In this document: in pieces, positions 20,203-25,476 of the stretch | Layout: the number at the start of each line of letters is the position of its first letter | How positions within the stretch are numbered: position 1 is the first letter of the stretch | Assembly (NCBI RefSeq): GCF_007474605.1 | Contig: NZ_VHKL01000004.1 | Span: 310,001-374,000 of the forward strand | DNA from: Rhodoligotrophos appendicifer | GTDB lineage: Bacteria > Pseudomonadota > Alphaproteobacteria > Rhizobiales > Im1 | Direction of reading: 5' to 3' | Length of the DNA stretch: 64,000 nucleotides | Translations under genes and position numbers: made by a program | The notes under the pieces: generated by a model | What the model saw: only the letters and a program-made list of their open reading frames with translations | Told to the model about the DNA's origin: nothing | Databases searched by the model: none

Positions 20203-20364
20203 GAAAATCCCATCTCCTGACATCGGGAATCGACGGCATAGCAGCCTTTTCCTCTGTACACTCGGGGTCTTCGGATGCCAAGCGTGCCACCCCAACCGAG
20301 ATTCTCCTTGACCCCCTCACCTCAGCGGCAAGAAATGCGATACTCAGACGCCAAGGATCAGACC

Positions 20365-21180
20365 ATGCCGCCTCTGAAGGCCCCTCCATACCTCGCTCAG
20401 TCGGAAATCTTCCAGAGTTTCACGCCGCTGGCCTTCGAGGCCGGTCGGGCGATCATGGGGGTCTATGACCGGGGCCCTTCGGTCACGTTGAAGGCCGACG
20501 CGTCTCCCGTCACTGAAGCGGACGGGCTTGCCGAGGCCCTGATTCTCGAGGGGCTCGGCCGCTGCCTGCCCAATATCGCCGTGGTTGCCGAAGAGGCGTG
20601 CTCGTCTGGATATTTTCCGCCCACGGGGGAGCGGTTCATCCTCGTCGATCCGCTGGACGGTACCAAAGAATTCATCAGCCGCAACGGTGAGTTCACGGTG
20701 AATATCGCGCTCATCGAGGACCAGGTTCCTATCGCAGGGGTCATCTTTGCTCCGGCCATCAACCGGTTCTGCTATGGCGAACGAGGCCTTGGGGCGTGGC
20801 ATTGCAAAACTGACGCCGACAGTACGGACGTCGTTGAACTCTTACCGATGCACACACGGCCCCAGCCGGATGGAGGCCTTGTTGTCGTCGCCAGCCGCAG
20901 CCATCGTGATGCGCCCACGGATGCGTATCTCGAAACCATAGCGGTCGACACCGTGGTGTCCGCCGGCTCATCCCTCAAATTCTGCCTCATCGCCGCAGGT
21001 GAAGCGGATATCTATCCGCGGTTCGGCCGCACCATGGAATGGGACGTGGCAGCGGGTCACGCGATTCTCAACGCAGCCGGCGGCAGCATGGTCGCCATCG
21101 ACGGCTCGCCCTTTCTTTACGGCAAACGAGAGCGAAACTTTGATAATCCCGGCTTCATCGCCCGCGGGTGGAGAGAGTGA
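20365..21180 (+). CDS. cysQ: 3'(2'),5'-bisphosphate nucleotidase CysQ
   Basis: This inositol-monophosphatase-superfamily enzyme of about 271 residues has the metal-binding motif VDPLDGTKEFI and the second-metal motif EWDVAAGHAIL. The first acidic site is VVAEE. CysQ hydrolyses 3'-phosphoadenosine 5'-phosphate to AMP, removing the by-product of sulfate activation and of PAPS-dependent sulfotransferases. It therefore suits the TPR-sulfotransferase encoded 3 kb upstream, although CysQ is general. The ATG at 20365 has AAGGA seven bases upstream; an ATG at 20335 is an alternative. Start is unsure, function is solid. Confidence 0.92.
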   Translation: MPPLKAPPYLAQSEIFQSFTPLAFEAGRAIMGVYDRGPSVTLKADASPVTEADGLAEALILEGLGRCLPNIAVVAEEACSSGYFPPTGERFILVDPLDGTKEFISRNGEFTVNIALIEDQVPIAGVIFAPAINRFCYGERGLGAWHCKTDADSTDVVELLPMHTRPQPDGGLVVVASRSHRDAPTDAYLETIAVDTVVSAGSSLKFCLIAAGEADIYPRFGRTMEWDVAAGHAILNAAGGSMVAIDGSPFLYGKRERNFDNPGFIARGWRE

Positions 21181-21466: not shown

Positions 21467-22093
21467 ATGACGAAGTCGCTAATGAAGTCTGTCCGAGCCA
21501 ATAGCCTAGCCATCATTGGTGGGATCGCTGTCGGTATTGGCGCTGCCGCTCTCAGCCCAGCCCCTGCCATATCCCAGACAACGGGTGCCATTCATCAGAA
21601 CCCGGCGGGCGAGAACTATACCTCCCAAGAAATCGTCGCCGCGGGGCATGGCTTCTTCGGAACGACAACCGCGGGATTTGCGGAAGCCATCGAGCGGACC
21701 TTTTCCGACGCCGGTCAGCCAAACGCTTACATCGTCGGCCAGGAAGGTGCCGGCGCTTTCTTCGGCGGCCTCCGCTACGGTGAAGGCACCATGTATCTGA
21801 AGAATGGCGGCAGCTACAAAGTCTACTGGCAGGGCCCCTCGATCGGCTTCGACTTCGGTGGCAATGGATCGCGGGTCATGACCCTCGTGTATAATCTCAG
21901 TTCCCCGAACCAGATCTTCGAGCGCTTCATCGGTGTTGAAGGCTCGGCCTATATCGTCGGTGGGTTCGGGGTAAACTACCAACAGAACAACCAGCTGAAA
22001 CTTGCCCCTATCCGGACCGGAGTCGGGGCCCGGCTGGGGGCCAATGTCGGCTATCTGAAATACACCCCTGAGGCGACTTGGAATCCCTTTTAA
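21467..22093 (+). CDS. eipA: EipA-like periplasmic envelope protein (DUF1134)
   Basis: The 208-residue protein starts with a signal sequence (SLAIIGGIAVGIGAAALSPAPAISQ). The conserved DUF1134 body follows: AAGHGFFGTTTAGFAEAIE, a glycine-rich VGQEGAGAFFGGLRYGEG, YWQGPSIGFDFGGNGSR and GVGARLGANVGYLKYT. In Brucella the homologue EipA is a periplasmic beta-barrel protein important for envelope stress resistance and directly activated by CtrA, so its proximity to ctrA, chpT and sciP is notable. The ATG is preceded by GTGGAAGA. No clear full CtrA box is visible upstream, only a TTTAGCCAT near 21300. Confidence 0.88.
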   Translation: MTKSLMKSVRANSLAIIGGIAVGIGAAALSPAPAISQTTGAIHQNPAGENYTSQEIVAAGHGFFGTTTAGFAEAIERTFSDAGQPNAYIVGQEGAGAFFGGLRYGEGTMYLKNGGSYKVYWQGPSIGFDFGGNGSRVMTLVYNLSSPNQIFERFIGVEGSAYIVGGFGVNYQQNNQLKLAPIRTGVGARLGANVGYLKYTPEATWNPF

Positions 22094-22265: not shown

Positions 22266-23366
22266 ATGGTCTATCTCGAGACGATCATGTTGATCGCTCT
22301 AGGCTTTGTCCTGGCAAGCCTGTTCGCTCTCTTTCTACTGCGAATCGTCTGGCATCACGGCGAGCGGACGGGGCGCCGTCGCGTGCAGTCCCAATTCCCC
22401 ACGACCAGCGAGGAATTGCGCGCGGACAGGGCTCGGCTGCGGGCAGAACTGGCGATGCTGGTTCGCAAAACCGAGCTCAGGATCGAAGATTTCAAACTCC
22501 AGCTGATCGAACGCGACCGCGAGATCGCCCTCACGCGGGCCAGGATGGAGGAGATCGGGCAGGAGCTGTCACAACGCGACGATCAGCTCGGGAAGCTGCG
22601 CGGAGGACGGCTGCCGCTCGAAGAGGAACTGGCCGAGCGCAGCTCTGCCCTGCAAAGCCTGCAAAGGACGGCCCGGGATTATCTCGATCAGATCCAACGC
22701 CTGACGCGGGAGGTCGAGGCGGCCCACGCCACGATCAAAGACCGCGAAAGGTTGATCTCCGACCTGAAGCGTGGATCGCCGCGTCGGAACGATGCCCCCG
22801 CTGCCCGGGGACATGCCCCGGAAATCCCCAACGCGCTGCTCGCGACAGAGGAGCACCTCCGCGAGAAAATTGCGACGATCGACGCCTTGACCCGAGACCT
22901 GTCCACTCGACGCGCGGATGCGCAGGCACTACCGATCCAAAACCCGGACGCGGGACAGGCTCACACCGAGGCCGAAAGGCGCCGTCTCGCCGGCACCCTC
23001 GATGAAGCCGAGCGCATGTCGCGGCATCTGATCCGAGGTTACGGGGAACTCCGGTCCCAAGTCGAGCAGGCTCCCCCTCCTGAAAATACCCCGCCCGTAA
23101 GCCCTGAAGAGCAACGGAGTGAAACCGAGGCCGAGCCAAATGCGGAAGACGTCGTCGCGGGCTGGGCCAAGTCTCCTCCAGAGGAAGCAGCCGATCCGGC
23201 CAGCGACAGTCGGGACACCGCGGATCCGGGGGATGAAGTCGATGCCGCCGTTCAGCCGGGCCAAAGGTCTACGCTGACCCGATTGAAGGCCAAGTCTCGT
23301 AAGCGACGCACCCCCAAGCGGGACGACGAAGACGCATCGCCTGATTCAGCCGAGCCGGCGCAATAG
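22266..23366 (+). CDS. Membrane-anchored coiled-coil protein, function unknown
   Basis: I do not recognise a named family. The 366 residues begin with one membrane helix (TIMLIALGFVLASLFALFLLRIVW). A long Arg/Glu-rich coiled coil runs to about residue 165 (RADRARLRAELAML, REIALTRARMEEIGQELSQRDDQLGKL), with further heptads to about residue 265. A Pro/Glu-rich acidic tail ends with a basic patch KAKSRKRRTPKRDDED. The topology would place the coil in the cytoplasm or periplasm as a scaffold. It lies between eipA and the ROK-like gene and reads in the same direction. Confidence 0.7.
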   Translation: MVYLETIMLIALGFVLASLFALFLLRIVWHHGERTGRRRVQSQFPTTSEELRADRARLRAELAMLVRKTELRIEDFKLQLIERDREIALTRARMEEIGQELSQRDDQLGKLRGGRLPLEEELAERSSALQSLQRTARDYLDQIQRLTREVEAAHATIKDRERLISDLKRGSPRRNDAPAARGHAPEIPNALLATEEHLREKIATIDALTRDLSTRRADAQALPIQNPDAGQAHTEAERRRLAGTLDEAERMSRHLIRGYGELRSQVEQAPPPENTPPVSPEEQRSETEAEPNAEDVVAGWAKSPPEEAADPASDSRDTADPGDEVDAAVQPGQRSTLTRLKAKSRKRRTPKRDDEDASPDSAEPAQ

Positions 23367-23444
23367 ACCGCCTTGCCGGCGTCCAGTTGCCAAGCAACTT
23401 TTCGAATGGCCGCACGTTACCCGTCACCGCGGGAGTGATCATCA

Positions 23445-24521
23445 GTGGCAAAATCAGCGCCTTCCAAGAACAGCCTGGCGACAGGAATCCACGCCGCCGT
23501 GGAGCTTCCGGCTGTTTTCGTCGACAAATACAACATCGAAACCAAGGATGACGGCGAGTTCATTGGGGACCGTGTCAGCGGACGGGCGTTCCGCAGGCTT
23601 CTGGATGAAAGAAGAAAGGCTCTCGCCAAGCACGGTCCAGATCCTCTCGGGGAGCAGTCCAGTGCCGAGGTCAGCAAAAAGAAACTCGATAAGATCCTCC
23701 TCGACGGTGATCCCAAGGCGGCAAGCGTCATCATCGGGGTTGTTGCAGATTTTGGAGAAACATTGGCCGACGTCATTCGACGTTTCCGCAAGACCAAAGA
23801 CTGGAACGACGTGTCGTCCATCACGGTGGGAGGCGGCCTTCGTCAGAGCCGCATCGGCGAACTGATCATCGGCCGCGCAGCCACGATCCTGCAGAGCGAC
23901 GGGGTTGATATCGATATGTTCCCCATCCAGCATCATCCCGACCAGGCTGGCCTGATTGGTGCGGTCCAGCTCACCCCACCCTGGATGCTGTCGGGGTTTG
24001 ACGAAATCCTTGCGGTAGACGTGGGCGGATCAAACATCCGCGCCGGGATCATCGCGCTGAATGGGAAAAAGGCCCCTGATTTTTCTGCAGCGGAGGTCAC
24101 CGAGTTCGAGCACTGGCGACACGCAGAGGACGATCCAAACAGACAGGAAGCGATCGATCGACTCGTTGATATGCTGAAAAACCTGATCCGGAAATCGAAG
24201 CGGGCCAAGCGCAAGCTCGCCCCGATGATCGGGGTCGGATGTCCCGGAGCCATCACTCCAGACGGTCAGATCCAAAAAGGAGGGCAAAACCTCCCTGGCA
24301 ACTGGGAGAGCTCCCGGTTCAATCTTCCCGACATCATAGAAGAGAAGATTCCGACCATCGGCGAGCATGAGACCTTTGTGGTCATGCACAATGACGCGGT
24401 GGTGCAGGGCCTCAGTCAAGTCCCGTTCATGCGAGACCATCGGCATTGGGCCGTGCTCACCATGGGAACCGGCCTCGGCAATGCCGTCTTCACGAACAAG
24501 GATGTCGAGAAGACAAAGTAG
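23445..24521 (+). CDS. ROK-superfamily protein with circularly permuted motif order
   Basis: The 358-residue protein carries every main ROK (sugar kinase/repressor) landmark, but in rotated order. Residues 44-49 (VSGRAF), 127-131 (TVGGG) and 166-173 (DQAGLIGA) are normally C-terminal. They precede the normally N-terminal phosphate motif VDVGGSNIR (191-199), GVGCPG (263-268), the catalytic HNDA (Asp317) and GTGLG (341-345), after which the protein ends. The zinc-binding Cys cluster of typical ROK proteins is absent. It starts with GTG. A glucokinase-like phosphotransfer is plausible because the Asp and phosphate loops remain, but the substrate is unknown. The permutation is read directly from motif order. 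Confidence 0.78.
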   Translation: MAKSAPSKNSLATGIHAAVELPAVFVDKYNIETKDDGEFIGDRVSGRAFRRLLDERRKALAKHGPDPLGEQSSAEVSKKKLDKILLDGDPKAASVIIGVVADFGETLADVIRRFRKTKDWNDVSSITVGGGLRQSRIGELIIGRAATILQSDGVDIDMFPIQHHPDQAGLIGAVQLTPPWMLSGFDEILAVDVGGSNIRAGIIALNGKKAPDFSAAEVTEFEHWRHAEDDPNRQEAIDRLVDMLKNLIRKSKRAKRKLAPMIGVGCPGAITPDGQIQKGGQNLPGNWESSRFNLPDIIEEKIPTIGEHETFVVMHNDAVVQGLSQVPFMRDHRHWAVLTMGTGLGNAVFTNKDVEKTK

Positions 24522-25191: not shown

Positions 25192-25476
25192 ATGGTCGAC
25201 AAAGAATCGAAGATCCGAAAGCGGGCTTACGAGCTGTGGGAGGCGGAGGGTCGACCCGACAATCGACATCATCATCATTGGGAACAGGCGACGCAGGAGC
25301 TGGAAAAGGGGCCCGTCGAGAAGGCCGGAAAAGGCTCGGCGAAGAAGGCTGATAAGCCGGTTCCTCAGGACGCTCCCGCCGCAAAGGGGAAATCCAAGGC
25401 AGAACCGACAAAGACGAGCTCCGGAAAAGCGACCGGTCGTCCTAAGGCGAAAACCAGAGGCGCAGCTTCAAAATAG
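25192..25476 (+). CDS. DUF2934 protein with histone-like basic tail
   Basis: The first ~40 residues match DUF2934 (IRKRAYELWEAEGRPDN followed by HHHHWEQATQEL), a short domain of unknown role widespread in rhizobia. The rest is a low-complexity Lys/Ala/Pro tail (KAGKGSAKKADKP, then GKATGRPKAKTRGAASK) like histone H1 or bacterial nucleoid proteins. The ATG has AGGAGAGGAAAGGA upstream. A likely EcfG promoter suggests stress induction. DNA binding is only inferred from charge. Confidence 0.8.
   Translation: MVDKESKIRKRAYELWEAEGRPDNRHHHHWEQATQELEKGPVEKAGKGSAKKADKPVPQDAPAAKGKSKAEPTKTSSGKATGRPKAKTRGAASK

What the first reader, a model, noticed from the sequence alone, without database searches (positions are those of the whole stretch)
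23445..24521. ROK-like kinase protein with circularly permuted domain order
Motifs that are C-terminal in normal ROK sugar kinases (VSGRAF at 44-49, TVGGG at 127-131, DQAGLIGA at 166-173) come first. The N-terminal motifs (VDVGGSNIR 191-199, GVGCPG 263-268, HNDA with Asp317, GTGLG 341-345) come last, and the protein ends right after GTGLG. The break point falls exactly between GTGxG and the usual zinc region, which is missing. This is what a circular permutation would give. I know no described permuted ROK enzyme, though I cannot search.
Basis: partly seen in the sequence, partly recalled or inferred. Interest (0 to 1): 0.75.

Follow-up and report, generated by a model that had tools for sequence, protein, structure and literature searches.

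The report
Circularly permuted ROK-type sugar kinase family
This gene encodes a sugar-kinase-like enzyme whose two halves are joined in the opposite order from ordinary relatives, and the same reshuffled protein is kept intact in many proteobacteria, so it is a real and apparently undescribed protein family rather than a broken gene.

Summary
Window 23445-24521 (+, GTG start, 358 aa) encodes a circularly permuted ROK kinase. Residues 189-353 match Pfam ROK positions 2-143; residues 44-177 match positions 179-291. A family profile matches ordinary ROK proteins in two pieces in swapped order, and rotating it at residue 185 merges them into one end-to-end alignment (score 61 to 90; shuffled controls lower). 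AlphaFold2 gives one confident fold (pLDDT 90.9, pTM 0.89). Its second half aligns with the ROK N-terminal lobe (Z 14.7), and its first half, predicted alone, with the ROK C-terminal lobe (Z 9.2). Full-length relatives in the same order occur in 56 of 397 genomes of the order, in other proteobacteria, and on about 200 rhizobial plasmids, labelled 'ROK family protein' or 'glucokinase'. They form one clade. Asp317 and the ATP-binding motifs are invariant; the sugar-binding ExGH motif and zinc-binding cysteines are gone. Best reading: an active ATP-dependent sugar kinase whose original ends are joined by a short linker, with new ends after the GTGxG hairpin. The substrate is unknown; co-occurrence does not support a simple glucokinase replacement. 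I found no published description of a permuted ROK in the open-access papers searched.

The parts
23445..24521 (+). whole gene of the circularly permuted ROK protein, 358 aa, GTG start, TAG stop
23431..23435 (+). GGGAG, possible ribosome-binding site
   Evidence: sequence
23481..23996 (+). residues 13-184: the part that is C-terminal in ordinary ROK kinases (second lobe plus closing helix)
23565..23591 (+). residues 41-49 GDRVSGRAF; Gly41, Asp42 and Phe49 invariant; lies where ordinary ROKs have (C)LExxxSG
23820..23837 (+). residues 126-131 ITVGGG, the C-terminal glycine motif of ROK kinases
23934..23963 (+). residues 164-173 HPDQAGLIGA, the last conserved ROK motif
23964..24005 (+). residues 174-187: short join between the original C- and N-termini
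24018..24035 (+). residues 192-197 DVGGSN, phosphate-1 motif
24231..24248 (+). residues 263-268 GVGCPG
24285..24305 (+). residues 281-287 QNLPGNW, almost fully invariant, probable sugar-binding loop
   Evidence: conservation; function inferred
24387..24395 (+). residues 315-317 HND; Asp317 is the predicted catalytic base
   Evidence: role from PMC5458393
24465..24482 (+). residues 341-346 GTGLGN, phosphate-2 motif; the chain ends 12 residues after it

Best explanation
The gene encodes an intact ROK-type sugar kinase that was circularly permuted, probably once and long ago. The old C-terminal helix now runs through a short linker into the old first beta-strand. The new ends lie in the C-terminal lobe, just after the GTGxG hairpin, where ordinary ROKs carry the ExGH and zinc-binding stretch, which was lost or replaced. 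The chain folds into the usual two-lobed ROK shape. ATP would bind through DxGGS and GTGxG, and Asp317 would act as base to move the gamma-phosphate to a sugar hydroxyl, with the sugar held by Asn316, the QNLPGNW loop and probably Asp42. Shown here: the permuted order, the predicted fold, the conservation and the single clade. Inferred: catalysis, and the roles of individual residues. Unknown: the substrate.
For: Pfam order 179-291 then 2-143. Profile comparison: native order gives two separate matches (score 61 and 44.5); rotation at 185 gives one 290-column match (score 90, E 7e-12). A rotation scan peaks at cuts 141-185, the only cuts that raise the score above 75; rotating with a shuffled first half reaches at most 68. 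Full model pLDDT 90.9, pTM 0.89. Second half aligns to the ROK N-lobe, Z 14.7 over 147 residues, and to polyphosphate/ATP glucomannokinase 1woq, Z 11.9. First half aligns to the ROK C-lobe, Z 9.2. The closing helix is ordered only in the full-length model and is below pLDDT 50 in the fragment, as expected if it packs on the other lobe. Invariant catalytic and ATP motifs in 34 relatives, the others 45-65% identical to this one. Permuted rows form one clade, support 99/98. In F. nucleatum NanK both chain ends lie in the same domain, residues 1-118 and 272-291 (PMC5458393), so a short join is feasible.
Against: No assay, and no order-independent superposition. ExGH, the motif that normally grips the sugar, is missing. 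The first-half similarity is weak for single sequences (E 0.04 in Pfam) and strong only with profiles and structure. Residues 13-75 have little sequence similarity to ordinary ROKs.
Confidence: 0.75

Rival explanations
1. Permuted ROK fold that no longer catalyses: a sugar- or nucleotide-sensing protein or regulator, as some ROK proteins are.
For: ExGH and the zinc site are absent. No conserved metabolic gene neighbourhood. No complementarity with PF02685 glucokinase.
Against: DxGGS/T, GxGxPG, Asn-Asp317 and GTGxGN are conserved or invariant across 45-65% identity. No DNA-binding domain was found. Loss of the catalytic Asp was seen only in a visibly decayed copy.
Confidence: 0.2
2. Permuted glucokinase specifically: the cell's glucose-phosphorylating enzyme in lineages without Glk.
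For: Best-scoring families are glucokinase-like (TIGR00744, NF045942). Some genomes, such as G193, G215 and G235, have it but no PF02685 match, and no ordinary full-length ROK was found in them.
Against: Across the order, 37 of 56 carriers also have PF02685 against 227 of 341 other genomes, i.e. no association (tallied). All family scores are far below the curated cut-offs. The Glu and His of ExGH are lost.
Confidence: 0.2
3. Not a permutation: an unrelated N-terminal domain fused to a truncated ROK N-lobe.
For: Single-sequence Pfam similarity of the first half is weak, and residues 13-75 align poorly with ordinary ROKs by sequence.
Against: Rotated profile aligns end to end. The first half alone finds ROK C-lobes as its top 15 structural rows. 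Independent PF00480 hit at 179-292 in a congener.
Confidence: 0.02
4. Assembly error or rearranged pseudogene.
For: Weak: the order is unusual, and a decayed partial copy exists in one other genome.
Against: Same order, full length and open frame in dozens of independent genomes and about 200 plasmids.
Confidence: 0.01

Closest known systems
ROK family sugar kinases with zinc (PF00480; fructokinase, NagK and glucokinase types)
   Same: Same predicted two-lobed fold; DxGGT, GxGxPG, catalytic Asp, GTGxG and C-terminal GGG motifs
   Different: Order of halves is swapped; ExGH and CxCGxxGC stretch absent; new termini inside the C-terminal lobe
Zinc-less ROK kinases (polyphosphate/ATP glucomannokinase 1woq, NF045942-like proteins, F. 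nucleatum NanK 5nck)
   Same: No zinc cysteines; shared NDAxVQGL and GTGxGxA motifs with the NF045942-like group; the second half scores best against that group (97.6 against 63.7)
   Different: These keep normal order and an ExxH/ExGH motif; the tree does not nest the permuted clade inside them, though long branches make that unsure
Hexokinase/Glk (PF00349, PF02685)
   Same: Same ASKHA superfamily and phosphate motifs
   Different: Below cut-off by sequence; normal order; a separate PF02685 glucokinase gene exists in the same genome
Other natural circular permutations (for example saposin-like plant proteases, cpGTPases; from memory)
   Same: Same kind of event: old ends joined, new ends opened, fold kept
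   Different: I know of none in ROK or other sugar kinases, and found none in the papers searched

Membership tests
ROK family kinase (signature motifs as listed in PMC5458393) | DxGxT nucleotide-binding motif, in the N-terminal region | tested here: inconclusive
   Motif present as DVGGS/DIGGT and invariant at D, G, G, but at residue 192, in the second half of the chain
ROK family kinase (signature motifs as listed in PMC5458393) | Strictly conserved catalytic aspartate | tested here: met
   Asn316-Asp317 invariant in 34 relatives
ROK family kinase (signature motifs as listed in PMC5458393) | ExGH sugar-binding motif | tested here: not met
   Absent in the rotated alignment; the position reads HGAxxLPSV
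ROK family kinase (signature motifs as listed in PMC5458393) | CxCGxxGCx(E/D) zinc motif | tested here: not met
   No such cysteines; some accepted ROK kinases also lack it
ROK family kinase | Pfam PF00480 above gathering score | tested here: met
   36.7 bits against 22.9, in two stretches in swapped order
ROK family kinase | Linear order N-lobe then C-lobe | tested here: not met
   Order is reversed
ROK family kinase | ATP-dependent phosphorylation of a sugar | not testable with these tools
   Needs an assay
Polyphosphate glucokinase (NF045942) | Score above curated cut-off 250 | tested here: not met
   24 bits
Glk glucokinase (PF02685) | Score above curated cut-off 22.1 | tested here: not met
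   11.1 bits

The most novel reading that the evidence does not exclude
A distinct kinase family in which circular permutation removed the sugar-gripping ExGH/zinc segment and opened the chain near the active site, giving a new substrate specificity or control not seen in ordinary ROK kinases.
Probability: 0.4. Interest if true: 0.75.

Novelty: new variant of a known kind. Interest (0 to 1): 0.62.

Why it matters
Stable natural circular permutations in enzymes are uncommon, and none appears described for ROK kinases. Here a whole family in many proteobacteria, including model rhizobia such as Sinorhizobium meliloti and Rhizobium leguminosarum, is labelled only 'ROK family protein' or 'glucokinase', so neither the permutation nor the loss of the sugar-binding motif is visible in annotation. 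It gives a natural test of how a two-lobed kinase tolerates moved ends, and a family whose substrate can be found by ordinary assay.

Tried and rejected
Phage records gave no match. Gene neighbourhood was clustered in 85 loci, with no neighbour conserved across the family; the frequent neighbours in the Bradyrhizobium loci include obg- and proA/proB-like genes (my reading of the translations) and reflect relatedness. A trehalose link through adjacent otsB holds only in Rhizobium, Shinella and one other locus. Replacement of Glk was tested and not supported. The viral structure library gave only generic Hsp70/RNase H-like hits. Two papers holding both 'circular permutation' and ROK or kinase-classification terms do not describe a permuted ROK. 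The tree could not place the permuted clade firmly against the zinc-less group because long branches meet. The first-half profile found no significant match in the small zinc-less group, which has a much shorter C-terminal part.

Full report
What was checked. The ORF at 23445-24521 on the plus strand encodes 358 aa from a GTG with a plausible GGGAG upstream. Pfam ROK matches residues 189-353 to profile positions 2-143 (whole protein E 4.5e-9). The first half alone matches 44-177 to positions 179-291 (E 0.047), and in 8 of 33 relatives the first half alone matches ROK at E 0.1 or better, best E 4e-4. A PF00480 search of genomes independently hit a congener's first half at 179-292, E 1.7e-4. The lost interval, positions 144-178, is where ordinary ROK proteins carry ExGH and the zinc cysteines.

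It is a circular permutation and not chance. I compared a profile of 34 relatives with a profile of 29 ordinary ROK proteins. In native order the profile matches in two pieces, 189-351 to 39-177 (score 61) and 76-179 to 238-334 (score 44.5), in swapped order. Rotated at residue 185 it gives a single 290-column alignment from 39 to 334, score 90, E 7e-12. A scan of rotation points every 20 residues peaks at 141-181 and reaches full coverage only at 181-185. Sixty column shuffles of the first half reached at most 24 against 44 observed, and rotation with a shuffled first half reached at most 68 against 90. A joint alignment of the un-permuted sequences with zinc and zinc-less ROKs lines up the motifs in order.

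Structure. AlphaFold2 without templates gives pLDDT 90.9 and pTM 0.89 for the whole chain, so the two halves are placed confidently against each other. The second half aligns to the N-terminal part of ROK kinases: human ManNAc kinase 405-554, Z 14.7, rmsd 1.9, 147 residues; polyphosphate/ATP glucomannokinase 1woq, Z 11.9. Residues 13-184 predicted alone (pLDDT 75) align to the C-terminal part of ROK kinases: 3r8e 119-289, Z 9.2, 141 residues, rmsd 3.5; the first 15 rows are all ROK proteins. Foldseek ranks 3r8e first for that half, with a weak E of 0.011. The last helix of the first half is disordered in the fragment and confident in the full chain, as expected if it packs on the other lobe, which is how ordinary ROK proteins are built: in F. 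nucleatum NanK the N-terminal domain is residues 1-118 plus 272-291 (PMC5458393). I could not run an order-independent superposition because coordinates are not exposed.

Distribution. Full-length homologues in the same order occur in 56 of 397 genomes of the order (59 with any match, three of them fragments), in 22 of 398 genomes drawn from the phylum, in 206 plasmid records mostly of Rhizobium and Sinorhizobium, 200 of them with at least 80% coverage, and in gammaproteobacterial and other contigs (some of these are metagenome bins whose names may be wrong). The aligned relatives are 45-65% identical to this protein and of similar length. In a tree of the shared N-lobe region the permuted proteins are one side of a strongly supported branch (99/98) with a long stem, consistent with one old origin; its placement relative to zinc-less ROKs is unsure. 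One genome holds a decayed copy that has also lost the catalytic Asp.

Function. Invariant residues include D192, G194, G195, N197, P267, G268, Q281-G285, W287, H315-D317 and T339, G341-N346, which covers the ATP motifs and the catalytic base. Two of the four ROK signature motifs listed in PMC5458393, ExGH and the zinc motif, are absent. Asp42 sits near where ordinary ROKs have the Glu after the cysteines and may replace it (inference). I therefore expect an active ATP-dependent kinase with altered sugar recognition. A simple glucokinase replacement is not supported: 37 of 56 carriers and 227 of 341 other genomes have PF02685 (my tally), and the window's own genome has both PF02685 and an ordinary ROK. 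Gene neighbours are not conserved family-wide, so the substrate is open.

Novelty. Searches of the open-access library for permuted ROK or sugar kinases found no description. Most subscription papers and all preprints are not covered, so 'undescribed' is provisional. Databases already hold these proteins under the names ROK family protein or glucokinase, so the family is known as sequence but apparently not as a permutation. I file it as a new variant of a known kind.

Noticed in passing
L130:1198-2013 (own genome, G000:C9): A second zinc-less ROK-like protein in normal order, resembling polyphosphate glucokinase (115 bits against a cut-off of 250); the neighbouring ORFs look like a phosphogluconolactonase and a gluconate kinase by eye.
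   Followed up: partly
window 25192-25476: A DUF2934 protein lies about 0.7 kb downstream; a DUF2934 gene also lies just downstream of the permuted ROK in a congener (L182), on a Bradyrhizobium plasmid (L132) and in L109.
   Followed up: partly
window 22266-23366: A membrane-anchored coiled-coil protein (by eye) 79 bases upstream with no Pfam match, conserved in the two congeners in the same place.
   Followed up: partly
L133:7090-7848, L135:7065-7877, L066: A trehalose-phosphatase-like (OtsB/HAD) gene is divergently adjacent to the permuted ROK in Rhizobium, Shinella and one Rhizobiales MAG.
   Followed up: partly
L178 (G229:C1:8500-13500), 2559-2846: A decayed copy of the permuted gene in which the catalytic HND reads HNA while GTGLGN is kept.
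   Followed up: partly
window 21467-22093: EipA envelope integrity protein gene (PF06577), next to an inositol monophosphatase-family gene at 20275-21180.
   Followed up: no
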